From positions 186,001-250,000 of the forward strand of contig NZ_ATYB01000009.1 of NCBI RefSeq assembly GCF_000427465.1: 64,000 bases of DNA, written 5' to 3'. Positions within the stretch are counted from its first letter, which is position 1. Each line of letters opens with the position of its first letter. Of the stretch, positions 15,502 through 41,536 are shown piece by piece. The stretch is from Sinorhizobium arboris LMG 14919 (GTDB lineage Bacteria > Pseudomonadota > Alphaproteobacteria > Rhizobiales > Rhizobiaceae). The translations under genes and the position numbers were made by a program. The notes below the pieces were generated by a model. It ran no database searches, was not told the origin of the DNA, and saw only the letters and a list, made by a program, of their open reading frames with translations.

Positions 15502-15975
15502 TCAGCCTCCGGCACGGATGCGTCGGGCGACCAGATGATCGACGGAAATGGCTCCCGCGCCCCGCGACAGGATGAGCAAGAGCAGGCTCGTCCACATCAG
15601 ATGCTCGACCCAATGATCCGGGTAGACGAATATCTGAATGGTAGCGACAACGCCTAGCAGCATCAGCGACGCGAGCCGCGCGAGCAGTCCCAAGGCGAGC
15701 ATCGCCGCGCCACTGAGTTCCGCCGTCGTCGCCAAAAGGGCGGCCAGCCCGGGATCGAGCAGCGGCACGCGATATTCGAAGGCGAACAGCTGAAGGGTTA
15801 CCGGCCAGGATGCGAGCTTCGTCTGGGCGGATTGCCAGAAAACCTCCGCGATCGCCACGCGGGCCGCCAGTTGCACGATCGATAGCGGCAGTGCGGTCGC
15901 CCACTCCACGGCCGTGTCGTGAAGTCTGTATATCGTTCTGGAAACACTGATCGGTGTTGCGCGCATTGTGGTCAT
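15502..15975 (-). CDS. DoxX-family membrane protein (bufferin cluster)
   Basis: 157 residues and four predicted membrane helices. RVAIAEVFWQSAQTKLASWP is the DoxX signature start, and LALGLLARLASLMLLGVVATIQ follows. DoxX proteins are integral membrane partners of redox enzymes and are frequent companions of DUF692/DUF2063/DUF2282 genes. It overlaps the DUF2063 gene by four bases, so it belongs to the bufferin unit. Confidence 0.9.
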   Translation of the reverse strand: MTTMRATPISVSRTIYRLHDTAVEWATALPLSIVQLAARVAIAEVFWQSAQTKLASWPVTLQLFAFEYRVPLLDPGLAALLATTAELSGAAMLALGLLARLASLMLLGVVATIQIFVYPDHWVEHLMWTSLLLLILSRGAGAISVDHLVARRIRAGG

Positions 15976-16772
15976 GACACTCTCTCCTGCTGGTTGGAAG
16001 CCCCCTTCATGCGATGGATGCCGATGACGAGCTCGCTGACGAAAAGACCCGTCAGCGCGCGGGCGATATCGAACTCAGGCGAATGGCGGCAGGCGCGAGC
16101 GACCGCAGCCTCGAGTCTGCTGCCCCGCATCAACACGTGCCAGAACGCAAACTCCGCGGCGTTGAGGCGCAGGAAGCGAACGGTGTCGGCATGTCTCCAC
16201 AGTGCAATGCGCTCCGGCTCGCGTTCGAGGTGCGCGAGCCTGTCGGGATCGCCTCCCTGCTGGTGCGCCGCCCAGATGCTGAGGGCGGGCCAGCGGCAGA
16301 AAACAAGTCGCAGTGAAGGCTGCAGGAAGAGTGCGAAGGACCCGCTCGAAAGCCCCTCGTAGAGCTCGATGAGTGTGCTTGGCCGCTCCAATGGCGCGTC
16401 GAGCGCTTCGGCGATCTTCCACTCCAGGCGCGCCACCTCGGAAACAAAGGGCATATCGGCGGTTCCCTCGAAGCGCGCGAGGAATGGCGCAAATCCTGCG
16501 CCGTAGCGCGAAAGGCGCGGCTCCTGTGGCGGGCTGTTCCGGATGAAACAGCCGGCCACATAACTGAAGTAGCGCTCGTCGAGCAGCCGCACCGTCACGG
16601 GGAACACGGCCTTCAATGTTGTCGTGAGCGAGACCAGCGTGTTGTTGCGGTAGATATTGAGCCGCCTTGCGGGATCGAAACGGCCCCGCTCGAGGAGTGG
16701 CAGGATATCGGCGGGGCCGGTCGTCAGAACCGCGCGCGCGACGACGCTCTGCAGGGTCTCAATGGAGGACAT
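15972..16772 (-). CDS. bufC: DUF2063 protein, partner of the MNIO enzyme (BufC-like)
   Basis: 266 residues from ATG 16772, which has AGGAGG seven bases upstream; this decides the start over longer in-frame options. The N-terminal DUF2063 (putative DNA-binding) domain shows FDPARRLNIYRNNTLVSLTT and AVFPVTVRLLDERYFSYVAGCFI, the family core. In bufferin/MNIO clusters the DUF2063 protein acts as partner of the DUF692 enzyme and recognises the precursor peptide; despite the family name, DNA binding is not the expected role. It overlaps bufB by 14 bases and DoxX by 4. Confidence 0.9.
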   Translation of the reverse strand: MSSIETLQSVVARAVLTTGPADILPLLERGRFDPARRLNIYRNNTLVSLTTTLKAVFPVTVRLLDERYFSYVAGCFIRNSPPQEPRLSRYGAGFAPFLARFEGTADMPFVSEVARLEWKIAEALDAPLERPSTLIELYEGLSSGSFALFLQPSLRLVFCRWPALSIWAAHQQGGDPDRLAHLEREPERIALWRHADTVRFLRLNAAEFAFWHVLMRGSRLEAAVARACRHSPEFDIARALTGLFVSELVIGIHRMKGASNQQERVS

Positions 16773-17790
16773 GGCCGTGCCTCCTGCAACCATCCGATGC
16801 GCACTTGCCGCAAGCGGCTTTGACTGCCGCGATTGCGGCAAGCGCCGGGAAACGGATGCCACTCGCGTCATCGCGGCCGGGCAGCTTCATGGTCTCGAAA
16901 CGGCTGTCCGGCATGGTGACCGGCGGCTCCTCCGGGCGCTCGCCGAAGGCGATACTGCGGGCCAGCATGTCCGCCCACATGGCTTCGCCCAACAGGACCT
17001 CGAGCGGCGGCACATCCGTGTCCCATTCGATCAGTGTCGGTCGCGGGCCGATCCTGCGGAGAGCGTGGGCATAGAGCGACCAGACGGCCGGCGGCACGCG
17101 CGACCCATGGTCGTCGATGAGAATGACGTCGCCATCCACTTCGTTGACTGCATGGCCGGCCAGGTGGATTTCGCCGATCGCATCGGCAGGCAGGGCGTCG
17201 ATGAAGGCGAATGCATCGTAATCGAGGTTGCTTGCAGAGACATGGACGTTGTTGACGTCCAGCAGCAAGCCGCAACCGGTGCGGTTGACGAGCTCGCTTA
17301 GGAACTCGGCCTCGGTCATGCTCGATTCCGCGAAGGCCAGATAGGCGGAGAGATTTTCGATGAACACCTGACGCTTGAGCGTGTCCTGCAGCCGGCCGAT
17401 GTTCCCGCAAACGATGGCGAGCGCCTCATCGTCATAACGGAGCGGCAGGAGGTCGTTGAGGTAGGCGCCGTCGGCGACGCTCCAGGCAAGGTGCTCCGAG
17501 ACGATCGCCGGTTGGAAGCGCTCGCAGACGAGACGCAGCCGCTCCAGATGCGCTCGGTCGACACCCGATGCGCTGCCGAGCGACAGTCCGACGCCGTGCA
17601 CCGAAAGCGGATAAACCTCGCGCAGCTTCTCGAGCGCATCCACGGCCGCTGATTGGCCCATGTAGTTTTCGGCATGGACTTCCAGCCAACCCGCAGCGGG
17701 CCTGCGGGAAAGCATGTCGGCAATGTGTATCGAACGGAGGCCGATGCCCGCAGCGCACGGCACCGGGTGGGTTGGAAACGTCTTGGGCAT
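16759..17790 (-). CDS. bufB: DUF692 multinuclear non-haem iron oxidase (MNIO), RiPP-modifying (BufB-like)
   Basis: 343 residues, slightly longer than the usual 280 because of the C-terminus. A TIM-barrel of the MNIO family with the expected metal-ligand segments all visible: EVHAENYMG, LSVHGVGLSLGS, SEHLAWS, FIENLSAYLAF, LLLDVNNVHVSA, IGEIHLAGHAV and LIDDHGSRVPP. These supply the His, Asp, Glu and Asn ligands of a two- or three-iron centre. MNIOs install modifications on cysteine of a ribosomal peptide; in bufferins cysteines become 5-thiooxazoles that chelate copper. The C-terminal tail carries extra Cys and His residues (KAACGKCASDGCRRHGH), which is unusual and may bind metal. Confidence 0.92.
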   Translation of the reverse strand: MPKTFPTHPVPCAAGIGLRSIHIADMLSRRPAAGWLEVHAENYMGQSAAVDALEKLREVYPLSVHGVGLSLGSASGVDRAHLERLRLVCERFQPAIVSEHLAWSVADGAYLNDLLPLRYDDEALAIVCGNIGRLQDTLKRQVFIENLSAYLAFAESSMTEAEFLSELVNRTGCGLLLDVNNVHVSASNLDYDAFAFIDALPADAIGEIHLAGHAVNEVDGDVILIDDHGSRVPPAVWSLYAHALRRIGPRPTLIEWDTDVPPLEVLLGEAMWADMLARSIAFGERPEEPPVTMPDSRFETMKLPGRDDASGIRFPALAAIAAVKAACGKCASDGCRRHGHVLH

Positions 17791-28690: not shown

Positions 28691-29722
28691 CTAGACGCCC
28701 AGCCAGAGCGCTGCCAGGATGAAAGCGGCCAGGAAGACGGTTTCAGCAATCAGCACGGCGAAGGCCTTGCCGCCGACGCCGAGGATGCGGGGCAGGGATG
28801 TCTTGATGCCGACGGCGGCGATGGCGATCAGCAGCGCCCAGCGGGAGAGGTTCCCGGCAAGCTCCGTCACGGGTCCGGGGATATTGAGCCAGGAATTGAT
28901 GCCGGCCAGCACCAGGAAGACGAGGACGAAGCCGGGGATGAGGGGCGCGCGCGCGGCATTCTCGGGCATGCGGCTGCGGAAGACGAGCGCGGCCGTCAGC
29001 ACGACAGGGGCGAGCATGGTGACGCGGATCAGCTTGACGAAGACCGCCGTCTCGCCTGCGGGAACGGAGACCGAGAAGCCCGCGCCCGCGACCTGTGCCA
29101 CGTCGTGGATCGTCGCACCGAGGAAAAGGCCGGTCAGGACATCGGACAGTCCGAGCGAGGCGGCAAGAACCGGGTAGAAGATCATCGCGAGCGTCGACAG
29201 GAGCGTGACGCCGATCACGACGAAGACCATTTCGCGCTCCGCCTCATTGGATTTCGGACGGGCGATGACCGCGGCGATCGCCATGGCTGCCGATGCGCCG
29301 CAGATCGCTACGGCGCCACCGGTCAGGGTGCCGAAGCGGGCATCCTTGCCGGTCAGCCGGGCAGCCAGCAGACCGAAGCCGATCGTTGCGACGACGGCGG
29401 CTGCCAGGACGAGGAGCACGGACAGGCCGAGATCCGAGAACATGGCAATGCTGACGCGAAGGCCGAGAAGGGCGATGCCGGCGCGCAGCAGCGTGCGCGA
29501 GGCGAAGTCGAGGCCGGCCGCACTGCGTTCGTCCTCCGACAGGAAATGCAGCGCCAGGCCGATGAGAATTGCGAGAAGCATGGCCGGAGCGCCGTAGTGC
29601 TCGGACAGGAAGGATGCCGCCAGCGATACCATCACAGCAACGGAGAGGCCGGGAAAAATGGTACGCAGGTATAGGGGAAAGCTGGTCTTTGCCATCTGGT
29701 CACGGGCGGCAGGCTCGGTCAT
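28691..29722 (-). CDS. YeiH-family putative sulfur-oxyanion exporter (UPF0324)
   Basis: 343 residues with about ten membrane helices. Family landmarks: LAILIGLALHFL, GIALLGLRVS, GGAVAICGASAAMAIAAVI and GATIHDVAQVAGAGFSVS. The family is annotated as putative sulfate exporter, and some members are tied to sulfonate degradation. It is the last gene of the minus-strand unit 35396-28691, 63 bases after the TRAP binding protein. In a pathway in which a monooxygenase releases sulfite, export of sulfite or sulfate is the obvious job; this is inferred from context. Confidence 0.88.
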   Translation of the reverse strand: MTEPAARDQMAKTSFPLYLRTIFPGLSVAVMVSLAASFLSEHYGAPAMLLAILIGLALHFLSEDERSAAGLDFASRTLLRAGIALLGLRVSIAMFSDLGLSVLLVLAAAVVATIGFGLLAARLTGKDARFGTLTGGAVAICGASAAMAIAAVIARPKSNEAEREMVFVVIGVTLLSTLAMIFYPVLAASLGLSDVLTGLFLGATIHDVAQVAGAGFSVSVPAGETAVFVKLIRVTMLAPVVLTAALVFRSRMPENAARAPLIPGFVLVFLVLAGINSWLNIPGPVTELAGNLSRWALLIAIAAVGIKTSLPRILGVGGKAFAVLIAETVFLAAFILAALWLGV

Positions 29723-29785
29723 GCGGTTCTGGGTGTCCTGATCGTGGCGGGAGGACGGCGGGAAATTCCGCGCCGCCCCTGATTG

Positions 29786-30847
29786 TCAGTTGATGTCGGC
29801 GGCGCGCTCAGCGTCGACCGTCTTCTGGGCTTCGCTGACGGCCGCCCCGAAGAGGTCAAAGACCTCCTGTCCGCGCGTCACATTGGCCTTGAACCACTCG
29901 AACACCGGTTCCACGGCCGCCTTGAACTCCGCCTTTTCGGCATCCGTAGGAACGTAAACCTCGCCGCCGGCCTTGGCGAAATCGGCATAGGCGCCGATTT
30001 CCTTGCGCTTGGGGCTGGCGAACGTCGCCTGCTGCAGGGCTGCGAAACCGTCGATCACGATCTTGCGCTGGTCTTCGCTCAGTTCGAGGAAGCGGTTGTT
30101 GGACATCCACCAGAAGGCGCCCATGTAGCTGTGGCCGTCCAGTGTCAGGTATTTGAGGCCTGCATCCGGAAACTTCATGCTCATGATATCGGTGATGCCG
30201 TTGGCGGTTCCTTCCACCACGCCGGTCTGCAGCGAGGTGAAGAGTTCCGGCCACGGAATGGGCGTCGGCGCGGCACCCACGGCTGTGGTGATCTTCTGCG
30301 GCAGGTCGGCCGGAACGGTGCGCATCTTCAGCCCGTTGAGGTCGGCCGGCGTCTTGACGGTGCGCCGCGTGTTGGCGTAGTTGCGCCAGCCGCCGGTATT
30401 GCCGATCGTCATGAGACGGATCGTGTTGTTGCTGTCTTCAAGCGCCATGTCCCGCAGCTTCCGGGTGAAGTCGCCCTCCAGAACGGTCTCGGCCACGCGG
30501 TCGTCGCTCATCAGGTAGGGCAGATCGAGAACCTGAATATAGGGGAACAGACCGGCAGCGCCCCCGGAGGTCGAGATATAGATGTCGATGGAGCCGTCTC
30601 CGACGCCCTGAAGGCATTCCTCGCCGGTCGCGCAGAGTTGCGTCCCGATGAAGAGCTCGACCGCGATTGCGCCATTGGACGCGTTCTCGATGTAGTTCTT
30701 GAAGACCACGAGGCCATCGTAGTCCTCGTCGTTCTCGTTGGAGTTGGCGGTCGCCCGCAGGGTGATGTCGGCGGCATGCGGCAGCGTCGTTGCAGCCATC
30801 ACCAGCGAACTGGCGACCAGAAGTGTTTTCATCAGATGTTTGAGCAT
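29786..30847 (-). CDS. TRAP transporter substrate-binding protein (DctP type)
   Basis: 353 residues from ATG 30847 with GGAGG upstream. Signal peptide (LLVASSLVMAATTLPHA) then a DctP domain: GTQLCATGEECLQGVGDGSI, LKMRTVPADLPQK with the conserved Arg that binds a carboxylate or, in sulfonate binders, a sulfonate, and TGVVEGTANGITDIMSMKF. It captures the substrate in the periplasm and hands it to the DctQM membrane complex encoded just upstream. Confidence 0.92.
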   Translation of the reverse strand: MLKHLMKTLLVASSLVMAATTLPHAADITLRATANSNENDEDYDGLVVFKNYIENASNGAIAVELFIGTQLCATGEECLQGVGDGSIDIYISTSGGAAGLFPYIQVLDLPYLMSDDRVAETVLEGDFTRKLRDMALEDSNNTIRLMTIGNTGGWRNYANTRRTVKTPADLNGLKMRTVPADLPQKITTAVGAAPTPIPWPELFTSLQTGVVEGTANGITDIMSMKFPDAGLKYLTLDGHSYMGAFWWMSNNRFLELSEDQRKIVIDGFAALQQATFASPKRKEIGAYADFAKAGGEVYVPTDAEKAEFKAAVEPVFEWFKANVTRGQEVFDLFGAAVSEAQKTVDAERAADIN

Positions 30848-30885
30848 TTTGGTTCCTCCCTTTTTTCTCAATCTCTTGTTTCGGT

Positions 30886-32178
30886 TCAGTCGATAAACCC
30901 CGCCAGACGGGGAACCGTCAGGCAGATCGCGGGAAAGTATGTAATCAGGAGAATCGCCACCACCTCGACCAGCAGGAACGGAAGCGTCGCGCGGGCAACC
31001 GTCTCGACCCTCAGGCCGGAAACGGAGGACGTGACGAAAAGCACGAGTCCCATGGGCGGTGTCAGAAGGCCGACGGTCAGGTTGACCGCCATGATGATGG
31101 CGAAGTGAACCGGATCGACGCCGAGCGAGGTGAAGATCGGTCCGAGGATGGGTCCGAGAATGATGATCGCCGGGCCGGCGTCCAGAAACATGCCGACGAT
31201 GAACAGCAGCAGGTTGATCAGCAGCAGCAGGATCAGCGGATTGTCCGACAGTGTCAGAATGAAGGCTGCCAAAATTTCCGGCGTGTGCGCGAGGCTGGCG
31301 ACGGTCTTGAAGGCCATCGCCGCGCCGACGAGCAGCAGGACGACGGCTGACGTCATGCCGGCGCGGATCAGGATGTCGGGCATGTCGCCGGCGCGAAGAC
31401 TGCGCAGCACGAATATTGCGATCAGCGCCGCATAGCCCGCGGCGATCGCGGAGGCTTCGGTGGGGGTGAAAATGCCGCCGAGAATGCCGCCCATGATGAT
31501 GACCGGGGTCATCAGCGGCCAGAAGGCCTTGAGGCTGGCATCGCCGCACTCCTTCCAGCTTGAGCGCTGGGTGGCCGGCGGCAGGTTCTCCCGGTTTGCC
31601 AGCAGGCGCACGACCACCATCAGACTGACGCCGATGAGGATGCCCGGCACGATGCCGGCCAGGAAGAGGGCGGCGACGCTCTCGCCCATGACATAGGCGT
31701 AGATGATCATGATGCCGGACGGCGGAATGATCGGCCCGATGATCGAGGACGCGGCCGTGACGGCGGCGGCAAAGCGGCGCGAATATCCCTGCCTTTCCAT
31801 GGCCGGGATCAGCATGGAGCCTAGCGCCGAGACATCGGCGACCGCAGAGCCCGAGAGGCCTGCAAACAGCATCGACGACAGGATGTTGACATGGGCAAGG
31901 CCGCCGCGCAGATGCCCGATGACGGCCTGCGAGAACTCGACCAGCCGGAGGGTGATGCCGGCCCGGTTCATCAGTTCGCCGGCCAGCATGAAGAACGGAA
32001 TGGCCATCAGCGGGAAGCTGTCCATGCCGTTATAGACATTGCGGTAGAGCAGCACGATGTCGCGCTCCTGGCCGTTCAGCCAGAGCAGGATGGCGGGCGC
32101 GGCGATGAGGCCGAACATGACCGGCAGGCCGAGCATCAGGAAAACGAGGAAAAGCGGCAGGAACAGTCCCAGCATCAT
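30886..32178 (-). CDS. TRAP transporter large permease (DctM type)
   Basis: 430 residues, about twelve helices. Landmarks: GLPVMFGLIAAPAILLW, MAIPFFMLAGELMNRAGI, GPIIPPSGIMIIYAYVMGES and the C-terminal TPPMGLVLFVTSSVSG. It carries the Na+/H+-coupled transport path. Its start overlaps the small permease stop by four bases. Confidence 0.94.
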   Translation of the reverse strand: MMLGLFLPLFLVFLMLGLPVMFGLIAAPAILLWLNGQERDIVLLYRNVYNGMDSFPLMAIPFFMLAGELMNRAGITLRLVEFSQAVIGHLRGGLAHVNILSSMLFAGLSGSAVADVSALGSMLIPAMERQGYSRRFAAAVTAASSIIGPIIPPSGIMIIYAYVMGESVAALFLAGIVPGILIGVSLMVVVRLLANRENLPPATQRSSWKECGDASLKAFWPLMTPVIIMGGILGGIFTPTEASAIAAGYAALIAIFVLRSLRAGDMPDILIRAGMTSAVVLLLVGAAMAFKTVASLAHTPEILAAFILTLSDNPLILLLLINLLLFIVGMFLDAGPAIIILGPILGPIFTSLGVDPVHFAIIMAVNLTVGLLTPPMGLVLFVTSSVSGLRVETVARATLPFLLVEVVAILLITYFPAICLTVPRLAGFID

Positions 32179-32765
32179 TCAGCCCCCAAGGTGGTGCTCA
32201 TCGGAATCGGCAGCAGTCGCGATGCGGCGCCGAAGAGGCTTGCGACGCACCGCAGGATCAGTTCGACATTCACGGCAAACATCACGGTCACACCGGTCGC
32301 AAGCGATGCCATCATCCAGCTTCGCGGCACCTTCATCCATTGCGCAAGGTCGAGCGACACGGGGATGCTGAGGGACGGCATGGTAAAGCGTCCGCCAAGT
32401 CCTGTTACCTCGTTCCAGCCGATGCGCAGGCCCCACCACAGGACCACTGCGGATATGAGGAGAAGAACAAGGTTGAGGATGGCTGCGGGCAATCTCGGAA
32501 GAACGGAGACGACCAGCTCAATGCTGACGAAGCCGCCGCGGCGGAAGGCCGTCGGCGCCATCAGGCCCGTCATCCAGAGCATGAGGAAGCGGGAAAACTC
32601 CTCCGTCCACGGCAGGGCGTTGCCCAGGCCGTAGCGGAAGAGAACCTGAACGAGGATGACGATGACCATGACGCCAAGGCAGGCGCCGCCGAGCCACCGG
32701 CCGATCGTCAAAAGGGTGGCATTCACTCTGCCAAGATGTCCGGCAGCCGCCAGAAGTAGGTCCAT
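32175..32765 (-). CDS. TRAP transporter small permease (DctQ type)
   Basis: 196 residues with four helices; PWTEEFSRFLMLWMTGLMAP is the DctQ signature. ATG 32765 has GGGAGGAA upstream. It sits 53 bases after the flavin reductase, so monooxygenase and transporter genes form one unit. Confidence 0.92.
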   Translation of the reverse strand: MDLLLAAAGHLGRVNATLLTIGRWLGGACLGVMVIVILVQVLFRYGLGNALPWTEEFSRFLMLWMTGLMAPTAFRRGGFVSIELVVSVLPRLPAAILNLVLLLISAVVLWWGLRIGWNEVTGLGGRFTMPSLSIPVSLDLAQWMKVPRSWMMASLATGVTVMFAVNVELILRCVASLFGAASRLLPIPMSTTLGAE

Positions 32766-32818
32766 TTATTCCTCCCGGGCGCTGTCCGGCTTCTCCTCCG
32801 AAGCCGGATGCGCCAGCT

Positions 32819-33349
32819 TCATGCCATCTGAGCGAAGCGTCCGAAGCTCCCCTTCGAAAAGCAGAGCGGTTCACCCTCCCGGTGTGCCGCCCGCAGGACA
32901 CGTCCGAGAAGGATCGTGTGGTCGCCGGCATCATAGCGGTCGGCGCGCGCGCATTCGAAGCGGGCAAGCGTGCCCCTGATCACCGGCACGCCTTCGGAAT
33001 TTTCCTGCCAGTCGATGCCGTCGAAGCCGCGTCCGCCGCGTGTGAACCGGGCGCTGAGTTCGTTCTGGTCGGCGCTGAGAACGTGGATGACGAAATGGTC
33101 TGCGGCCGTGAACAGTTCATGGCGGCTGGAACTCTTGGCCGGCGACCACAGGACCAGGGGCGGATCAAGGGAGACGGACGCGAAACTGTTGACGGTCATG
33201 CCCGAGGGACCCTCCGGCCCGGACACGGTGACGACCGTGACACCCGTCGTGAAACTGCCGAGTGCGTTGCGCAGCGACCGGGCGTTGGTCGGCTCGGGTA
33301 TGAAGAGATGTTCACCGTTCGAAGTGGCAATATTGGCAGCCATCATCAC
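32819..33349 (-). CDS. NAD(P)H:flavin reductase (HpaC/SmoA-like), partner of the monooxygenase
   Basis: 176 residues. The FMN-binding split-barrel is clear: RNALGSFTTGVTVVTVSGPE, GMTVNSFASVSLDPPLVLWS, HFVIHVLSADQ and the C-terminal FSKGSFGRFA. It supplies FMNH2 to the two-component monooxygenase at 34239-35396. It overlaps the aldo/keto reductase by four bases. The equivalent gene in the sulfoquinovose monooxygenase pathway is smoA. Confidence 0.9.
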   Translation of the reverse strand: MMMAANIATSNGEHLFIPEPTNARSLRNALGSFTTGVTVVTVSGPEGPSGMTVNSFASVSLDPPLVLWSPAKSSSRHELFTAADHFVIHVLSADQNELSARFTRGGRGFDGIDWQENSEGVPVIRGTLARFECARADRYDAGDHTILLGRVLRAAHREGEPLCFSKGSFGRFAQMA

Positions 33350-34239
33350 GCGACCTCCTGTCCTGTCGCCAGAGTGTAGAGTTCAAACCAGGTTTGCCGG
33401 TCCATCTCAATCCTGGCCGCTTCCGAGATCCGCGAAATGCGCTCGAGAGTGTTGGTGCCGAGAACCGGGAGGATCCGCGCCGGATGACGCAGCAGCCAGG
33501 CAATTGCTGCCGCACCCGCATCCGTTCCGAATGTGGCGCCGAGCTTTTCCAGCGCGGCGGTCAATTCGCCGTTCGATGCCGAAAAGAGCGCTCCGCCGCC
33601 GAGCGGCGACCAGGCCATCGGCGGGATCCTGCGTTCCTGCAGAAAGGCCAGATCCCCGTTGGTGAAGGCCTCGGTGGCAACCAGGCTCATTTCGATCTGG
33701 TTGGTCGCAAGCCGCGTCTGCATGGCCGATTGCAGCAGCGAGAAATCGAAGGGCCTGAAATTCGAGACGCCGACGGCCCTGACCTTGCCGGAGGCGACCA
33801 GCGCGTCAAGCGCCGATCCGGTTTCCTCGGGATCGATCAGCGGGTCGGGGCGATGGATCAGAAGCAGGTCGACACGATCGGTCGCAATGTCGCGCAGCGA
33901 AGCCTCGACGGAGGCCGTGATGTGGGTACGGGTCGTGTCGTAGTGCTTGACGCGCGCGCTCGCATGGCGGCCGGCAGGCGCGACGATCCCGCATTTGGTG
34001 ACGATCTCGATCCGCTCGCGCAGATGTGGCGCTGCGCGAAGGGCGCCGCCGAGAATGGCCTCGGCGGTATAGCCACCGTAGATGTCCGCCTGGTCGATCG
34101 TGGTAATGCCCTGTTCGAGGCAGCGCTCGATCTTCGCCTGAACATGCACCGGCGACGTGTCGGCATCGTCGCCGATCCGCCACATGCCGTAGACGAGGCG
34201 GCTCAGGCTCAGGTCGGGGGAAAGGGAAATGCGGTCCAT
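33346..34239 (-). CDS. Aldo/keto reductase (YdhF-like; SmoB role possible)
   Basis: 297 residues. The AKR tetrad is visible: the Asp of TIDQADIYGGY, the Tyr of the same segment, the Lys of VTKCGI and the His of LLIHRPDPLIDPEETG. GVSNFRPFDFSLLQ follows, and the closest family I recall is YdhF. It sits between the monooxygenase (1-base overlap, TAATG) and the flavin reductase (4-base overlap), so it acts in the same pathway. In the sulfo-SMO pathway an AKR reduces 6-oxo-glucose to glucose; that role is plausible here but not proven. Confidence 0.9.
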   Translation of the reverse strand: MDRISLSPDLSLSRLVYGMWRIGDDADTSPVHVQAKIERCLEQGITTIDQADIYGGYTAEAILGGALRAAPHLRERIEIVTKCGIVAPAGRHASARVKHYDTTRTHITASVEASLRDIATDRVDLLLIHRPDPLIDPEETGSALDALVASGKVRAVGVSNFRPFDFSLLQSAMQTRLATNQIEMSLVATEAFTNGDLAFLQERRIPPMAWSPLGGGALFSASNGELTAALEKLGATFGTDAGAAAIAWLLRHPARILPVLGTNTLERISRISEAARIEMDRQTWFELYTLATGQEVA

Positions 34240-35396
34240 TAGCGGCGAACTCCTATGCCAAGCGGGGTTGCCGGCGTTTCATCGGGAACGCGGCCGTATT
34301 CGTGCGGGAGAGAGCAGGTCTTGAGCTGAGGCAGAACCTTCGTGCCGAAATGCTCCGCCTCGTCGAGATGCGGGTATCCGGACAGGATGAACGCGCGGAT
34401 GCCTATTTTCCGGTAGGCTTCCAGCTCGCTGAGGATGCGATCGGTGGAGCCGACGAGGGCCGCGCCGCAGCCGGAACGGGCCCGGCCGACGCCGGTCCAC
34501 AGGTTCGGCTCGATATAGCCGAACTGGTCGGCAAGTTCGCGGGCGCGGGCCTGATGCGAGACGCCGAGGGAAATGCTGTCATGGGCCCGGTCGCGGATAA
34601 GCTTGCCATATTCGTCGTCGAGCCGGGAGACGAGATGCTCAGCATATTCGCGGGCTTCCTGCTCCGTGTCGCGCACCACCATGTGGACGCGCAGACCGTA
34701 GTCGAGCGTGCGGCCATGGGCCTCGGCGCGAGCGTGGGCGGCCTTCATGCGGCCGGCAAGCGCCTCGCGGGTTTCCGGCCACATCAGGTAGACGTCGCAT
34801 TGCGCGCCGCACAGTTCGAGCGCATCGGGAGAATAGCCGCCGAAATAGAGAAGCGGGCCGCCATTCTGCTGGTAGGGCCTTGCCGGGTCCGTGGAAACGC
34901 CCTTGAAATTGTAGATCTCGCCGTCATGGTCGATCGTGTCGCGGGTCCAGGCCTGGCGCAGGATCTCCACCACTTCATGGCTGCGGCGGTAGCGATAGGC
35001 GCTGTCGGCGGTCTCGCCGGGGAAGTCCGAACTGATGACGTTGAGAGTGAGGCGGCCCTTGAGCATGTGGTCGAGCGTGGCGACCGTGCGCGCCAGCATG
35101 ATCGGCTGCATCTCGCCGCAGCGAATGGCGGCCAGGAAGTTGATGTCGCTGGTAAGCGGCGCGCAGCCGGCAACGAAGCTCAGCGTATCCTGTCCGACCT
35201 GATAGGAGGACGGGCAGAGAATGTTGCGGAAGCCATGCTTCTCCGCCGCTTTCACGATGTCGGAGCAATGCTCGAAGCTCGAGCGCAGCGCGCCGTCGGG
35301 AACGCCGAGATAGGCGTAGTCATCCGAGCAGAGCGCCGCGAACCACGAAACTTCCGCGGCGTCCAGATCCGCCGATGTCACAGGGACGATGCTCAT
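34239..35396 (-). CDS. FMNH2-dependent sulfonate monooxygenase (SsuD/SmoC-like, LLM class)
   Basis: 385 residues. ATG 35396 has GGAGGAG upstream. A luciferase-like TIM barrel with the SsuD-type active-site stretches: YGLRVHMVVRDTEQEA (Arg and His of SsuD R226/H228), VGRARSGCGAALVGS (R297 region, which contacts the sulfonate) and LSGYPHLDEA (Y331). The enzyme inserts oxygen at the C-S bond and releases sulfite plus an aldehyde. The companions (flavin reductase, aldehyde-reducing AKR, sulfur exporter) point to a sugar sulfonate such as sulfoquinovose rather than a simple alkanesulfonate. No SsuABC transporter is nearby. Confidence 0.92.
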   Translation of the reverse strand: MSIVPVTSADLDAAEVSWFAALCSDDYAYLGVPDGALRSSFEHCSDIVKAAEKHGFRNILCPSSYQVGQDTLSFVAGCAPLTSDINFLAAIRCGEMQPIMLARTVATLDHMLKGRLTLNVISSDFPGETADSAYRYRRSHEVVEILRQAWTRDTIDHDGEIYNFKGVSTDPARPYQQNGGPLLYFGGYSPDALELCGAQCDVYLMWPETREALAGRMKAAHARAEAHGRTLDYGLRVHMVVRDTEQEAREYAEHLVSRLDDEYGKLIRDRAHDSISLGVSHQARARELADQFGYIEPNLWTGVGRARSGCGAALVGSTDRILSELEAYRKIGIRAFILSGYPHLDEAEHFGTKVLPQLKTCSLPHEYGRVPDETPATPLGIGVRR

Positions 35397-35440
35397 AAAT
35401 CTCCTCCGGGTGCTGCAATTTCCTCTTGCCTATCATCCGC

Positions 35441-35456
35441 ATTGATGTAGATCAAT
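35441..35456. promoter_or_regulatory. Candidate GntR operator in the divergent promoter
   Basis: ATTGAT-GTAG-ATCAAT is an inverted repeat with 6-base arms and a 4-base spacer, followed at 35460-35466 by another GTATCAA half-site. It lies 45 bases before both the monooxygenase start (35396) and the GntR start (35502), where an autoregulating GntR/UTRA repressor would bind. Confidence 0.5.
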
Positions 35457-35501
35457 AGTGTATCAATTTTTCCTGCGCAGCGTCGCGACGGTTTCGAAGC
35501 C

Positions 35502-36206
35502 ATGAATCAAACGAACGGAAGTCTGCCGATCTATCTCCAGATCACGGAGCTGCTGGTGCGCGATATCGCGGCCGGCCGGCTGATCGACGGGGAAAAGCTC
35601 GCGCCGGAGCGGGACATGGCGGAAAAACTGGGCATCGCCGTCGGGACATTGCGCAAGTCGCTTGCCGAATTGCAGGCGCGCGGACTTCTGGAGCGGGTTC
35701 AGGGCTCGGGCAATTACGTCCGTGCAATCAGCGATCCGCAGAGCGTCTATTCGATGTTTCGGCTGGAGCTTCTGGGCGGCGGTGGCCTGCCGACGGCAGA
35801 AGTCCTCGATGTCACCCGGCTGGAAAAGCCGGCAGAGTTACCAGAATTCGGCACGTCCGCCGAAGGGCACCGGATCCGCCGAATCCGGCGGCTGAGCGGC
35901 AAGGTCGCCGCGCTGGAGGAAATCTGGCTCGACGGTTCCTTTGCCGATGTGGTGACGCGCGAGGATCTTTCGGAATCGCTCTACCTCTACTACCGGACGC
36001 GGCTTGGCCTGTGGATCGCGCGGGCGGAGGACCATGTCTATCTGGACAGCGTGCCCGACTGGGCGCCCGAGGTCTTCGCCCTGCGGCCGGGAGCCCCCAT
36101 CACTCATGTCCTGCGCATCAGCTATTCCCAGAGCGGAACGCGGGCCGAAGTGTCCCGCACATGGTTCGATCACGATGTCGCGCGCTATGTGACGCGGCTC
36201 AAGTAG
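35502..36206 (+). CDS. GntR-family regulator, HutC/UTRA subfamily
   Basis: 234 residues. The N-terminal winged helix reads LVRDIAAGRLIDGEKLAPER and GTLRKSLAELQARGLLERVQ, followed by a UTRA effector domain (RIRRIRRLSGKVAALEEIWL; ITHVLRISYSQSG). It is divergent from the monooxygenase operon and 22 bases upstream of the Gfo/Idh/MocA gene. UTRA domains commonly bind sugars or sugar phosphates, which supports a sugar sulfonate as pathway substrate. Confidence 0.92.
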   Translation: MNQTNGSLPIYLQITELLVRDIAAGRLIDGEKLAPERDMAEKLGIAVGTLRKSLAELQARGLLERVQGSGNYVRAISDPQSVYSMFRLELLGGGGLPTAEVLDVTRLEKPAELPEFGTSAEGHRIRRIRRLSGKVAALEEIWLDGSFADVVTREDLSESLYLYYRTRLGLWIARAEDHVYLDSVPDWAPEVFALRPGAPITHVLRISYSQSGTRAEVSRTWFDHDVARYVTRLK

Positions 36207-36227
36207 AGAGCAGAGAGGAAGACAGCC

Positions 36228-37340
36228 TTGACACCCAGTTACGGTATTATCGGTTGCGGCATGATGGGGCAGGAGCATCTGCGCAACATCGCATTGCTGC
36301 CGGAGGCATCGGTCGCCGCGATTTTCGAGCCGGACCCCGCCATGCGGGCGCTGGCCGCCGAAAATGCGCCGGGAGCCGTGCTGGCGGACAGCATCGAGGC
36401 GCTTCTTTCGGTGCCGGAGGTGAACTGCCTGCTGATTGCCAGCCCCAACCATCTCCATGTGCCGCAGATGGAGGCGATTGCGCGGATCCGGCCGCTGCCG
36501 GTCCTGGTGGAAAAGCCGCTCTTCACGGCACCTGCCGATGCGGCGAAGCTGGAAGCGCTGCGCCGTGTCTATCCGGCGCCCGTCTGGGTGGCGATGGAAT
36601 ACCGCTACATGCCGCCCGTGGCACGCCTCATCGAGGAGGCGGATGCCGTGACCGGCGGCATCCGGATGCTGACCATCCGCGAGCATCGCTTCCCCTTCCT
36701 CAGCAAAGTCGGCGACTGGAACCGGTTCAACCGCAATACGGGCGGCACGCTGGTCGAGAAATGCTGCCACTTCTTCGACCTGATGCGCCACATCCTGCAA
36801 TCGGATCCCGTCCGGGTCATGGCGTCCGGTGGCCAGGCGGTCAATCACCTCGACGAACGCGTCGGCGACGAGCGGCCGGACATCTGGGACAATGCCTATG
36901 TCATCGTCGACTTCCAGTCCGGCGCGCGCGCCATGCTCGAACTCTGCATGTTTGCGGAAGGCGCGCGCTATCAGGAGGAAATTTCCGCGGTCGGGCCGAA
37001 GGGCAAGATCGAGTGCCTGGTTCCGGGGCCGGGCCGCTTCTGGCCGGAGCACCTCGGAGAGCCGCCGGTCGCACAGGTGATCGTCTCGCCGCGCGCACCG
37101 AAGGGGCCGAAATTGGTGAAAATCCCCGTCGATCCGCGGCTGCTCGATGCGGGCGATCACAACGGATCGACCTTCTACCAGCACCTCCGCTTCCAGCGCG
37201 TGGTCATGGGATTGCAGGATGTCGAGGTCACGCTCGACGACGGCTTGTGGGCCGCGGCAATCGGCATGGCAGCCCAGCAATCCGCCATGACCGGGCGCGC
37301 GGTGGAGTTCGATCGCCAGAGCTACAAGGTGGCCGTCTGA
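36228..37340 (+). CDS. Gfo/Idh/MocA-family NAD(P)-dependent oxidoreductase (candidate NAD+-dependent sulfoquinovosidase)
   Basis: 370 residues. The start is TTG 36228 (AGAGGAAG upstream), because the first ATG at 36261 would cut the Rossmann motif YGIIGCGMMGQEHLRNIA. LVEKPLFT is the EKP motif, followed by the EYRYMPPVARL and NRNTGGTLVEKCCHFFDLMR stretches of the substrate domain; the CHFFD part supplies the His and Asp expected in the active site. Members oxidise sugars or inositols. The GH188 branch uses bound NAD+ to hydrolyse sulfoquinovosides. No classical GH31 sulfoquinovosidase is present, so this gene could fill that gap. Confidence 0.85.
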   Translation: MTPSYGIIGCGMMGQEHLRNIALLPEASVAAIFEPDPAMRALAAENAPGAVLADSIEALLSVPEVNCLLIASPNHLHVPQMEAIARIRPLPVLVEKPLFTAPADAAKLEALRRVYPAPVWVAMEYRYMPPVARLIEEADAVTGGIRMLTIREHRFPFLSKVGDWNRFNRNTGGTLVEKCCHFFDLMRHILQSDPVRVMASGGQAVNHLDERVGDERPDIWDNAYVIVDFQSGARAMLELCMFAEGARYQEEISAVGPKGKIECLVPGPGRFWPEHLGEPPVAQVIVSPRAPKGPKLVKIPVDPRLLDAGDHNGSTFYQHLRFQRVVMGLQDVEVTLDDGLWAAAIGMAAQQSAMTGRAVEFDRQSYKVAV

Positions 37341-38948: not shown

Positions 38949-40004
38949 ATGTCTACAATTGAAGAGAGTCTGCGGGCGATATCAGAGCGCGTCAAATCAC
39001 ATTCCAGCACCATGGCAACCGAAGAGGCAGTGAAAACGGCCGTCGTCCTGCCGTTTCTCCGCTCCCTTGGTTACGAAGTATTCGATCCCACCGAGGTGAT
39101 ACCGGAGTTTACGGCCGACGCTGTGGGCAAAAAGGGCGAGAAGGTCGACTACGCGATCAAGATCGACGGCGAGATCCGAATCCTTATCGAGTGCAAACCG
39201 ATCTCGGTAACACTGGAAAAGAAGCATCTGGACCAGCTCTATCGCTACTTCAGCGTGACGAACGCCAAGTTCGCCATACTGACGAATGGCCGAACTTTCA
39301 ATTTTTACACGGACCTCGAAGCTCCGAACAAGCTTGATACACGCCCCTTCTTTGTTTTTGACGTCACTGATTTCAACGCTGGAATCGTGACCGAGCTGCG
39401 TAAATTCGAAAAGGCCTCTTTCGACGTATCTGCCATTCTCGCGACGGCCGAGCGACTGAAGTACACGTCCGGTGTCAAGCAAGTGATTTCCAAGCTTATC
39501 GAAGAGCCTTCCGAAGACTTCGTACGGCTCGTCGCCGGAAACGTCTACGAGGGCAGGATCACGGCCCCGGTAAAAGAGATGCTGACCGGAGTGGTTAGGA
39601 CCGCCTTCCGTGACGTGATCATGGACTCGGTTAAGAACCGACTTTCCAGCGCACTTGCCGACACCGAAGAAGTCATTGAAAGGATCGACGAACCCGTCGA
39701 GGGAGAGCCCGAGGTCGTCACGACCGAAGAGGAGCGTGAAGGGTACATGATCGTCAAAGCGATCGTCCGAGACACGATCTCACCGAAACGCGTCGCTATG
39801 CGCGATCAAAAGTCCTATTGCGGCATCCTGGTCGACAACAACAATCGCAAGCCACTGGCAAGGCTACACTTCAATCGTTCGGTCAAGTACATCGGGCTTT
39901 TCGATGGTGAGGCGGAGGAGAGACTCATCATCGACTCTCTTGATCAGATCTACGACCACAGTGACCGACTCAGGGCTACGGCGACGAAGTACGCAGGCGA
40001 ATAG
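38949..40004 (+). CDS. Type I restriction R-subunit N-terminal-like nuclease (HSDR_N family)
   Basis: 351 residues. The N-terminal half is a PD-(D/E)XK nuclease of the HSDR_N type: E26 in TEEAVKTAVVLPFLRSLGY, then D67 in KVDYAIK and E81-x-K83 in LIECKP. The C-terminal part (KSYCGILVDNNNRKPLARLH, VKYIGLFDGE) is the conserved extension of the stand-alone family found in phages and defence islands. No helicase, HsdM or HsdS genes lie nearby, so it is not a complete type I system. It follows the KTSC gene by about 90 bases. All catalytic residues are in place. Confidence 0.88.
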   Translation: MSTIEESLRAISERVKSHSSTMATEEAVKTAVVLPFLRSLGYEVFDPTEVIPEFTADAVGKKGEKVDYAIKIDGEIRILIECKPISVTLEKKHLDQLYRYFSVTNAKFAILTNGRTFNFYTDLEAPNKLDTRPFFVFDVTDFNAGIVTELRKFEKASFDVSAILATAERLKYTSGVKQVISKLIEEPSEDFVRLVAGNVYEGRITAPVKEMLTGVVRTAFRDVIMDSVKNRLSSALADTEEVIERIDEPVEGEPEVVTTEEEREGYMIVKAIVRDTISPKRVAMRDQKSYCGILVDNNNRKPLARLHFNRSVKYIGLFDGEAEERLIIDSLDQIYDHSDRLRATATKYAGE

Positions 40005-40834: not shown

Positions 40835-40872
40835 GGGGTCGTTTGCGGGAGGGGGCGAAATCCTACGCTAAG
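40835..40872. repeat. Tn3-family terminal inverted repeat (single end)
   Basis: A 38-base sequence beginning GGGGTCGTTTGCGGG and ending TCCTACGCTAAGGC matches the terminal inverted repeats of a rhizobial Tn3 branch: GGGG start, usual length, and overlapping the tnpA stop at 40868. No second copy is seen nearby, so only one transposon end remains. Confidence 0.7.
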
Positions 40873-41536
40873 GCTTTGGCCAACGATATTCTCGGGTGAG
40901 ATTGATGTGTTCCCAGCCGAGGGGTGAGACATGGGCCAGCAAATCGGGCGGCAGCAGTCTTCCTGCGCGTTTCTGGCTGGCGACTACCTCTCCCAGCTTC
41001 ATGGTGTTCCAGAAGATGATGATCGCGGCGAGCAGGTTCATGCCGGCGATGCGGTAATGCTGGCCTTCGGCTGAACGGTCGCGGATTTCACCCCGGCGAT
41101 GGAAGCTGATTGCCCGCTTCAGCGCATGATGCGCCTCGCCTTTGTTGAGCCCGATCTGGGCACGGCGTTGCAGCTCGGCATCCAGAATCCAGTCGATCGT
41201 GAACAGGGTTCGCTCGACGCGGCCGACCTCGCGCAGAGCAGTATCAAGTTCGTTCTGCCTCGGATAGGAGGCGAGCTTGCGTAAAATCTGGCTGGGCGCG
41301 ACGCTACCGGCCGCAATGGTGGCAGCGATGCGCAGAATGTCAGGCCAATTGCGCTCGATCATGGCCTGGTTGATCTTTCCGCCGATCATAGTTCGCAAAT
41401 GGGCTGGCGCTGACGAAGGATTGAATGCGTATAGCTTTTTGGATGGCAGATCGCGGATGCGTGGAGCGAACCGATAACCGAGGATAGCACAGGCGGCAAA
41501 CACGTGATCGGTGAACCCGCCTGTATCAAAGCGCCA
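40868..41536 (-). mobile_element. tnpA: Tn3-family transposase, C-terminal remnant
   Basis: About 223 residues. From about 41536 the frame reads WRFDTGGFTDHVFAACAILG, then RFAPRIRDLPSKKLYAFNP, RTLFTIDWILDAELQRRAQI, GLNKGEAHHALKRAISFHRR and the C-terminal VSPLGWEHINLTREYRWP. This is the conserved last quarter of Tn3 transposases. The usual length is near 1000 residues, so three quarters are missing; the upstream edge abuts the CxxC gene. It is inactive without help in trans. Confidence 0.9.

What the first reader, a model, noticed from the sequence alone, without database searches (positions are those of the whole stretch)
28691..37340. TRAP-fed sulfonated-sugar degradation island resembling the sulfo-SMO pathway
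SsuD-like monooxygenase, AKR and flavin reductase overlap by 1-4 bases, as smoC, smoB and smoA would, followed by DctQMP and a YeiH exporter, and divergent from GntR/UTRA and a Gfo/Idh/MocA gene. Known rhizobial/Agrobacterium sulfo-SMO clusters use an ABC importer and a GH31 sulfoquinovosidase; here a TRAP system and no GH31 are present. The island is intact while both flanks are decayed, which suggests recent selection or transfer.
Basis: partly seen in the sequence, partly recalled or inferred. Interest (0 to 1): 0.8.

Follow-up and report, generated by a model that had tools for sequence, protein, structure and literature searches.

The report
Sulfoquinovose breakdown cluster with TRAP importer
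A bacterium carries an intact nine-gene set predicted to import a plant sulfolipid sugar, cut it free, split off its sulfur as sulfite and use the rest as glucose; the chemistry is a known pathway, and the likely new point is a family of TRAP importers that seems dedicated to this sulfonated sugar.

Summary
The monooxygenase, aldo-keto reductase and flavin reductase are SmoC, SmoB and SmoA of the known sulfo-SMO pathway: SmoC is 341/384 and 327/384 identical to two solved chains, SmoB 231/297. So GH31 is replaced, not missing.

The layout is common: of 80 SmoC loci, 23 have GH188+TRAP, 31 have GH31, none has GH31+TRAP. Rhizobium and Roseobacter-type plasmids share it.

New and useful: DctP relatives, searched independently of SmoC in 397 genomes, sit beside sulfo-SMO or sulfo-EMP2-like genes in 17 of 22 loci, own included. 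That points to a TRAP subfamily for sulfoquinovose or its glycosides. A 26-bp element between smoC and the GntR gene is conserved.

Transfer is plausible (SmoC in 1 of 33 genus genomes); 'both flanks decayed' is only partly true.

The parts
28691..29722 (-). YeiH/SuyZ-type (PSE family, PF03601) exporter, predicted sulfite export
   Evidence: PF03601 210.5 bits; TIGR00698 124.7 bits, below its cut-off of 232.6; found in the fetched stretch of 13 of 23 GH188+TRAP loci
29786..30847 (-). DctP, TRAP solute-binding protein, predicted SQ / SQ-glycoside binding
   Evidence: PF03480 186 bits; signal-peptide-like N-terminus (by eye); relatives beside sulfo-SMO or sulfo-EMP2-like genes in 17 of 22 loci, own included
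30886..32178 (-). DctM, TRAP large permease
   Evidence: PF06808 399 bits
32175..32765 (-). DctQ, TRAP small permease, 4-base overlap with dctM
   Evidence: PF04290 73 bits
32819..33349 (-). smoA, flavin reductase supplying FMNH2
   Evidence: PF01613 137 bits; closest NCBIfam model FerA 223.5 bits, below its cut-off of 260
33346..34239 (-). smoB, aldo-keto reductase (6-dehydroglucose to glucose, by homology)
   Evidence: 231/297 identical to PDB 7bby
34239..35396 (-). smoC, FMNH2-dependent SQ monooxygenase
   Evidence: 341/384 identical to 7olf and 327/384 to 7oh2
35442..35467 (-). 26-bp conserved element, candidate SmoD operator
   Evidence: ATTGATACANNATTGATYTACATCAA, 0 mismatches; next best in the 64-kb window has 7; conserved across loci
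35502..36206 (+). smoD, GntR/UTRA regulator
   Evidence: PF00392 and PF07702; present in 79 of 80 SmoC loci
36228..37340 (+). sqgA, GH188 NAD+-dependent sulfoquinovosidase
   Evidence: 8zn9 533 bits, 8qc3 377 bits, 187/356 identical to 8qc3; 8 of 9 named active-site residues map

Best explanation
A complete sulfo-SMO cluster for sulfoquinovose (SQ) and its glycosides. DctP binds SQ or sulfoquinovosyl glycerol (SQGro) in the periplasm and DctQM imports it. In the cytoplasm SqgA (GH188, NAD+) frees SQ from the glycoside. SmoA makes FMNH2; SmoC uses it with O2 to cut the C-S bond, giving sulfite and 6-dehydroglucose; SmoB reduces that to glucose. YeiH/SuyZ exports sulfite. SmoD (GntR/UTRA) represses the divergent smoC and smoD-sqgA transcripts through the conserved 26-bp element until an SQ-type inducer arrives. 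Shown here: gene order, intactness, family assignments, conserved SqgA residues, conserved element, co-occurrence. Inferred from characterised relatives: all catalytic steps. Inferred from context only: TRAP ligand, exporter substrate, SmoD-element pairing, transcript units.
For: SmoC and SmoB identity to solved chains. 7oh2 is 384/384 identical to SmoC of L065 (Xaviernesmea oryzae) and 7olf 381/384 to L019 (A. tumefaciens MAG); the A. tumefaciens pathway is described in PMC12890257 (passages). SqgA match and residues; GH188 replaces GH31 in sulfo-SMO and other SQ clusters (PMC10755693, text parts 1-3 of 4). TRAP was never seen with GH31 in 80 SmoC loci. DctP relatives sit with two unlike SQ-type gene sets. 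SmoC in 20 and DctP in 22 of 397 genomes, both in 10, against about 1.1 by chance (my arithmetic). YeiH/SuyZ as probable sulfite exporter: PMC11582611 (passages).
Against: No activity or binding data for this organism. The nearest PDB relatives of DctP are distant (best phmmer 112.7 bits), and its AlphaFold model was too poor to use (mean pLDDT 45.7). Four of 22 DctP loci show no SQ genes and one is cut by its contig. Ten of the 20 SmoC genomes in the order have no DctP match of this kind. The four GH31 genes beside DctP relatives do not look like SQases (L131's scored and aligned; the other three by similarity to it). TIGR00698 and FerA cut-offs are not reached. Co-occurrence counts are not phylogenetically independent: 7 to 8 of the 10 shared genomes lie in one family.
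Confidence: 0.87

Rival explanations
1. The enzymes do sulfo-SMO chemistry, but the TRAP system imports something else, for example a sugar acid or another sulfonate, and SQ enters by another route.
For: TRAP binding proteins mostly take organic acids (established knowledge). Four of 22 DctP loci have no SQ genes nearby. One relative sits with GH188 and also a galactarate-dehydratase-family gene (L129). Half of the SmoC genomes of the order lack this DctP.
Against: The TRAP genes follow smoA on the same strand in the window and in the seven plasmid records with TRAP whose annotation I opened. The subfamily recurs with GH188 and with isomerase-aldolase-kinase sets. No other importer lies between 28691 and 37340.
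Confidence: 0.12
2. A general alkanesulfonate or taurine desulfonation set (SsuDE type).
For: SmoC matches the SsuD model TIGR03565 with 243 bits.
Against: It is far below that model's cut-off (518) and 89% identical to a SmoC chain, against 203 bits to the SsuD chains 1nqk/1m41; an SQ-type glycosidase and SmoB lie alongside.
Confidence: 0.03
3. A cluster for a different sulfosugar, such as sulfofucose or another SQ stereoisomer.
For: Specificity for the sugar epimer was not tested; a sulfofucose pathway exists in Paracoccus (PMC12421959, start of abstract and passages).
Against: SmoC, SmoB and SqgA are close to SQ-characterised enzymes, and the eight mapped SQ-contact residues of SqgA are kept.
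Confidence: 0.04

Closest known systems
sulfo-SMO (sulfo-ASMO) pathway of Agrobacterium tumefaciens, smo cluster
   Same: SmoC, SmoB and SmoA orthologues in the same order, divergent GntR/UTRA regulator
   Different: The Agrobacterium locus L013 has a four-gene ABC importer and a GH31 SQase on the other side of the regulator (the names SmoE-H and the reading of those four genes as ABC parts are mine, not a Pfam call); here TRAP importer, GH188 SQase and YeiH exporter
GH188-containing sulfo-SMO clusters of Roseobacter and relatives (Kaur et al. 2023, PMC10755693)
   Same: GH188 beside the regulator; Ruegeria, Salipiger, Roseivivax and Paracoccus plasmids have smoCBA-dctQMP with divergent regulator-GH188, as here
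   Different: None found in kind; a YeiH-type gene is adjacent in Rhizobium SL42, Salipiger and Roseicitreum, a few genes away in Ruegeria TM1040, and not in the stretch shown for others. The paper's Figure 5 was not visible; its legend lists a Mesorhizobium strain among the gene-cluster representatives
GH188 NAD+-dependent sulfoquinovosidase SqgA (8qc2, 8qc3)
   Same: 187/356 identity to 8qc3; catalytic and sulfonate-binding residues kept
   Different: Closer to 8zn9 (533 against 377 bits), for which one search found no relevant paper
TRAP importers for sulfonates: isethionate DctP (8t9t), taurine TauKLM
   Same: Same superfamily; R176 is invariant in 20 of 20 DctP rows and aligns with an Arg of 8t9t; TauMLK is listed as a taurine transporter in PMC5320631 (passages)
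   Different: Low similarity to 8t9t (119.7 bits for the profile); predicted larger, sugar-sulfonate ligand

Membership tests
sulfo-SMO pathway cluster | Both SmoB and SmoC encoded (criterion used in PMC13372026, passages) | tested here: met
   SmoC 341/384 to 7olf and 327/384 to 7oh2; SmoB 231/297 to 7bby; source organisms placed
sulfo-SMO pathway cluster | SmoA (flavin reductase) next to SmoB and SmoC | tested here: met
   flavin reductase (PF01613) overlaps smoB by 4 bases
sulfo-SMO pathway cluster | A sulfoquinovosidase, GH31 or GH188, in the cluster (usual, not strictly required) | tested here: met
   GH188 at 36228-37340; no GH31 SQase match in the genome
sulfo-SMO pathway cluster | Sulfite and glucose from SQ | not testable with these tools
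   needs enzyme or growth assays
GH188 sulfoquinovosidase | Sulfonate triad Arg166, Leu170, Lys172 (ArSqgA numbering) | tested here: met
   R154, L158, K160
GH188 sulfoquinovosidase | Lys107, Tyr136, Glu189, His193, His321 at the sugar | tested here: met
   K96, Y125, E177, H181, H311
GH188 sulfoquinovosidase | Glu163 at the position of GH109 Tyr226 | tested here: inconclusive
   at the offset that fits the other eight, residue 163 of the 8qc3 chain reads Val and 164 Glu; the window has Glu (E152) at the latter
GH188 sulfoquinovosidase | NAD+-dependent cleavage of SQ glycosides | not testable with these tools
   needs assay
TRAP transporter (DctPQM) | All three subunits intact with family domains | tested here: met
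   PF03480, PF04290, PF06808; no inner stops
SQ/SQGro-specific TRAP subfamily (proposed here) | Orthologues reside in SQ catabolic clusters | tested here: met
   17 of 22 loci; 1 cut by contig, 4 without; met as a tendency, not without exception
SQ/SQGro-specific TRAP subfamily (proposed here) | Ligand binding | not testable with these tools
   model pLDDT 45.7, no docking attempted
YeiH/SuyZ (PSE) exporter | PF03601 full-length membrane protein | tested here: met
   210.5 bits over 24-322 of 343 aa; TIGR00698 cut-off not reached

The most novel reading that the evidence does not exclude
This DctPQM belongs to a TRAP subfamily dedicated to sulfoquinovose or its glycosides. It is shared by sulfo-SMO clusters and by isomerase-kinase-aldolase (sulfo-EMP2-like) clusters, mostly with cytoplasmic GH188, and is regulated in sulfo-SMO clusters by SmoD at a 26-bp operator. 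It would be the first TRAP route for a sulfosugar that I know of.
Probability: 0.72. Interest if true: 0.5.

Novelty: new member of a known kind. Interest (0 to 1): 0.4.

Why it matters
Sulfoquinovose is made on a scale of about 10 billion tons a year (PMC10755693, abstract). How bacteria take it in decides who degrades it and in which chemical form. The only binding protein I know of for SQ glycosides is the ABC-type SmoF (recalled). A TRAP subfamily marked by its neighbours gives a testable uptake system and a genomic marker for SQ users in rhizobia and Roseobacter. It also fits a cytoplasmic NAD+-dependent SQase, which needs the intact glycoside to be imported. The pathway itself is not new.

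Tried and rejected
SsuD-type alkanesulfonate or taurine role: rejected on score and identity. FNR/FixK box: the inner TTGATN4ATCAA fits the FNR consensus (recalled), but the conserved block is longer, its left part is kept even in GH31 loci that lose the right half, and the exact 14-mer occurs once in the genome; a GntR operator is preferred, not proven. The third cluster type with GH88, KduI and large unknown genes (15 of 80 loci) looked like a new SQ module, but GH88/KduI suggest a neighbouring uronate cluster; not followed. DctP structure: model unusable, no fold search was run. A DctP profile search of the PDB at E<=1e-40 listed nothing; at 1e-10 the best was 4p47 at 4e-40. Literature: searches listed no paper that I could see to treat TRAP uptake of SQ. 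Of the 12 papers I looked for 'TRAP' in four (PMC11659671, PMC11968277, PMC6278857, PMC12421959): every passage shown was about an instrument, a column or 'trapping'. 'TRAP' does not occur in PMC12890257, PMC9594981 or PMC13372026. The two papers were not opened. Not held, so unread: Sharma 2022, Liu 2023, Ma 2025; supplements were closed by the cap. The empty-site comparison in relatives was not done.
Full report
WHAT IS THERE. Nine intact genes lie at 28691-37340. Seven on the minus strand: LLM monooxygenase, AKR, flavin reductase, DctQ, DctM, DctP, YeiH. Two divergent on the plus strand: GntR/UTRA regulator and Gfo/Idh/MocA protein. Overlaps are 1 base (monooxygenase/AKR), 4 (AKR/flavin reductase) and 4 (DctQ/DctM). 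Pfam and NCBIfam agree with these names. DctP starts at 30847 with a signal-peptide-like stretch.

CORE ENZYMES. The monooxygenase is 341/384 identical to PDB 7olf and 327/384 to 7oh2; the next relatives, SsuD chains, fall to about 203 bits. The depositors' names ('methanesulfonate sulfonatase', 'alkanesulfonate monooxygenase') do not say SQ, so I traced them: 7oh2 equals the SmoC of Xaviernesmea oryzae (L065, 384/384), and 7olf differs by three residues from that of an Agrobacterium tumefaciens MAG (L019). The AKR is 231/297 identical to 7bby, itself 292/297 and 286/297 identical to proteins of a Rhizobium rhizogenes and an A. tumefaciens locus. That these are the published SmoC and SmoB structures is recalled. 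The sulfo-SMO pathway of A. tumefaciens is described in PMC12890257 (passages only).

THE MISSING SQASE IS PRESENT. The Gfo/Idh/MocA protein matches 8zn9 (533 bits), 8qc3 (377) and 8qc2 (370); the next hit, 6jw6, has 55 bits. 8qc2/8qc3 are the GH188 NAD+-dependent sulfoquinovosidases of Kaur et al. 2023 (PMC10755693; text parts 1-3 of 4 read). Of nine active-site residues named there, eight map at one offset to K96, Y125, R154, L158, K160, E177, H181 and H311; for the ninth (Glu163) the numbering is off by one, and the window has Glu at the neighbouring position. The genome holds one such gene at E<=1e-20 and no match to a GH31 SQase; the GH31 query found its own gene in a control genome, and nothing in the genome of A. 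albertimagni, whose locus L014 has GH188.

HOW COMMON IS THE LAYOUT. SmoC is in 80, the regulator in 79, SmoB in 72, SmoA in 72. GH188 in 47, GH31 in 31, neither in 2; both of those (L035, L048) run out of contig. TRAP in 24: 23 with GH188 (13 of them with YeiH), one (L035) cut. GH31 with TRAP: 0 of 80. GH31 with the Agrobacterium-type ABC system: 23. GH188 with that ABC system: 1. GH188 with another ABC system and GH88/KduI-type genes: 15. Sixteen loci with an SQase have no match to the transporters I looked for. This sample is biased to close relatives. Among 21 plasmid records with a SmoC match, 11 are at 73% identity or more. TRAP genes are annotated beside SmoC in 10 of these 11: seen in the annotation of Rhizobium SL42, Ruegeria THAF33 and TM1040, Salipiger, Roseivivax THAF197b, Roseicitreum and P. 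seriniphilus, and from match listings for Ruegeria AD91A, Roseivivax THAF40 and Qingshengfaniella. Marinovum has an ABC system instead. The other 10 records (under 60% identity) were not looked into. On a SmoC tree the modules have changed partners several times: starred branches force at least 6 changes for the GH188+TRAP label.

WHAT THE TRAP SYSTEM CARRIES. I searched for DctP independently of SmoC in 397 genomes of the order: 22 match at E<=1e-100, own included. Wider stretches were fetched for 20 of the 21 others; the last (L115) is a contig end. Result: own locus and nine others (L120-L128) are sulfo-SMO with GH188. Three (L129, L137, L139) have GH188 with all eight residues, plus an isomerase, LacD-type aldolase and PfkB-type kinase, but no SmoC match. 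Four (L130, L131, L133, L134) have the same three enzymes and a GH31. L115 shows only a kinase. L132, L135, L136 and L138 show nothing of the kind (L136 has a weak kinase hit). The genes of L131 were named by Pfam and NCBIfam, part of those of L129, L137 and L139 too, the rest by similarity to L131. The isomerase of L131 hits the sulfoquinovose isomerase model NF048012 with E 5e-80 but at 269 bits, below its cut-off of 700, so 'sulfo-EMP2-like' is an inference. That GH31 scores higher with the alpha-xylosidase model (455 bits) than with PRK10426 (210 bits, which I recall as the YihQ model) and lacks the stretch WCEDWVGLRQTSFGARLFWDW of the Agrobacterium SQase. In total 17 of 22 loci carry an SQ-type set. 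On a DctP tree L129 groups within the SMO-associated set (SH-aLRT 91, not starred; short search, no bootstrap). SmoC is in 20 of the 397 genomes and both proteins in 10; chance would give about 1.1 (product of the two frequencies, kinship ignored). Ten SmoC genomes have no such DctP. Only the few best candidates per genome were scored, so absences may be misses. The invariant R176 of 20 DctP rows aligns with an Arg of the isethionate-binding DctP 8t9t; the role of that Arg in binding acid groups is recalled.

EXPORT. PMC11582611 (passages) argues that SuyZ/YeiH-type proteins more likely export sulfite than sulfate. PMC5320631 (passages) lists tauMLK among taurine transporters and tauE/tauZ among sulfite/sulfate exporters. 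Both fit a desulfonation cluster.

REGULATION. Upstream of smoC, 77 of 81 rows (80 loci and the window) hold the anchor ATTGAT[CT][TC]; aligned on it, 75 different sequences give the consensus ATTGATACA.tATTGATtTACA, whose left repeat was not part of the anchor. The right part ATCAA is kept mostly in GH188 loci. The 14-mer TTGATYTAYATCAA is exact in 40 of 80 loci and the window (34 of 47 GH188 loci, 5 of 31 GH31 loci, 1 of 2 without SQase), and in 0 of 4050 plain shuffles of the upstreams. It occurs once in the 6.85-Mb genome, with three one-mismatch sites elsewhere. Of eight named plasmid loci, the 26-mer is exact in four, within 1-2 mismatches in three and absent in Marinovum, where smoC and the regulator are not divergent. 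Of nine sulfo-SMO loci of the order-wide set it is exact in seven, one mismatch in one, missing in L128; in all 11 non-SMO DctP loci the best match has 7 or more mismatches. It therefore tracks smoC-smoD, not the TRAP genes. That SmoD binds it is inferred.

FLANKS AND ORIGIN. Near the island lie remnants: DUF3500 C-terminus, a weak HerA-like piece, Tn3 transposase C-terminal part. Five genes at 14-21.5 kb match their domains nearly in full, an MFS ORF at 22 kb only in part; on the right PfkB, DUF2092 and DUF900 genes match nearly in full. Island GC (0.62-0.665) and GC3 (0.76-0.86) resemble the genes at 14-23 kb (GC 0.61-0.66, GC3 0.70-0.79); the nearest left genes (GC 0.58-0.59) and the right side (0.54-0.61) are lower. 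SmoC is in 1 of 33 genomes of the genus and in two other sampled genomes of the family. Gain by transfer, or wide loss, both fit; recent transfer is not shown.

VERDICT. A full sulfo-SMO cluster with GH188 SQase, a known kind. The better question it opens is whether this TRAP subfamily is the SQ or SQGro importer. I found no held paper that says so (searches; few of the listed papers opened), but three key papers and all supplements were out of reach.

Noticed in passing
L130 (2638-8130), L131 (10802-16354), L133, L134: TRAP relatives beside an SQ-isomerase-like protein, LacD aldolase, PfkB kinase and a GH31 closer to alpha-xylosidase than to the SQase: either a new SQase type or a different sugar sulfonate.
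   Followed up: partly
L129 (3889-16310), L137 (2349-9978), L139 (1003-8905): GH188 with all eight mapped active-site residues plus isomerase, aldolase, kinase and TRAP, without a SmoC match: sulfo-EMP2-like clusters fed by the same TRAP subfamily.
   Followed up: partly
L012 (1026-8330), L028 (11162-20407) and 13 further loci: SmoC/GH188 loci beside an ABC system, GH88, KduI and an 826-851 aa protein without any Pfam match (domains checked in L012 and L028 only); in 8 of the 15 no SmoB match lies in the fetched stretch.
   Followed up: partly
window 40868-41503 (-): ORF covering only profile positions 184-389 of the Tn3 transposase domain, in a lower-GC stretch right of the island.
   Followed up: partly
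window 15972-17790 (-): MbnB/TglH/ChrH (DUF692) and DUF2063 pair, a RiPP-modification type pair.
   Followed up: no
window 38949-40004 (+): HSDR_N-domain protein of 351 aa with low GC (0.539), near the Tn3 piece.
   Followed up: no
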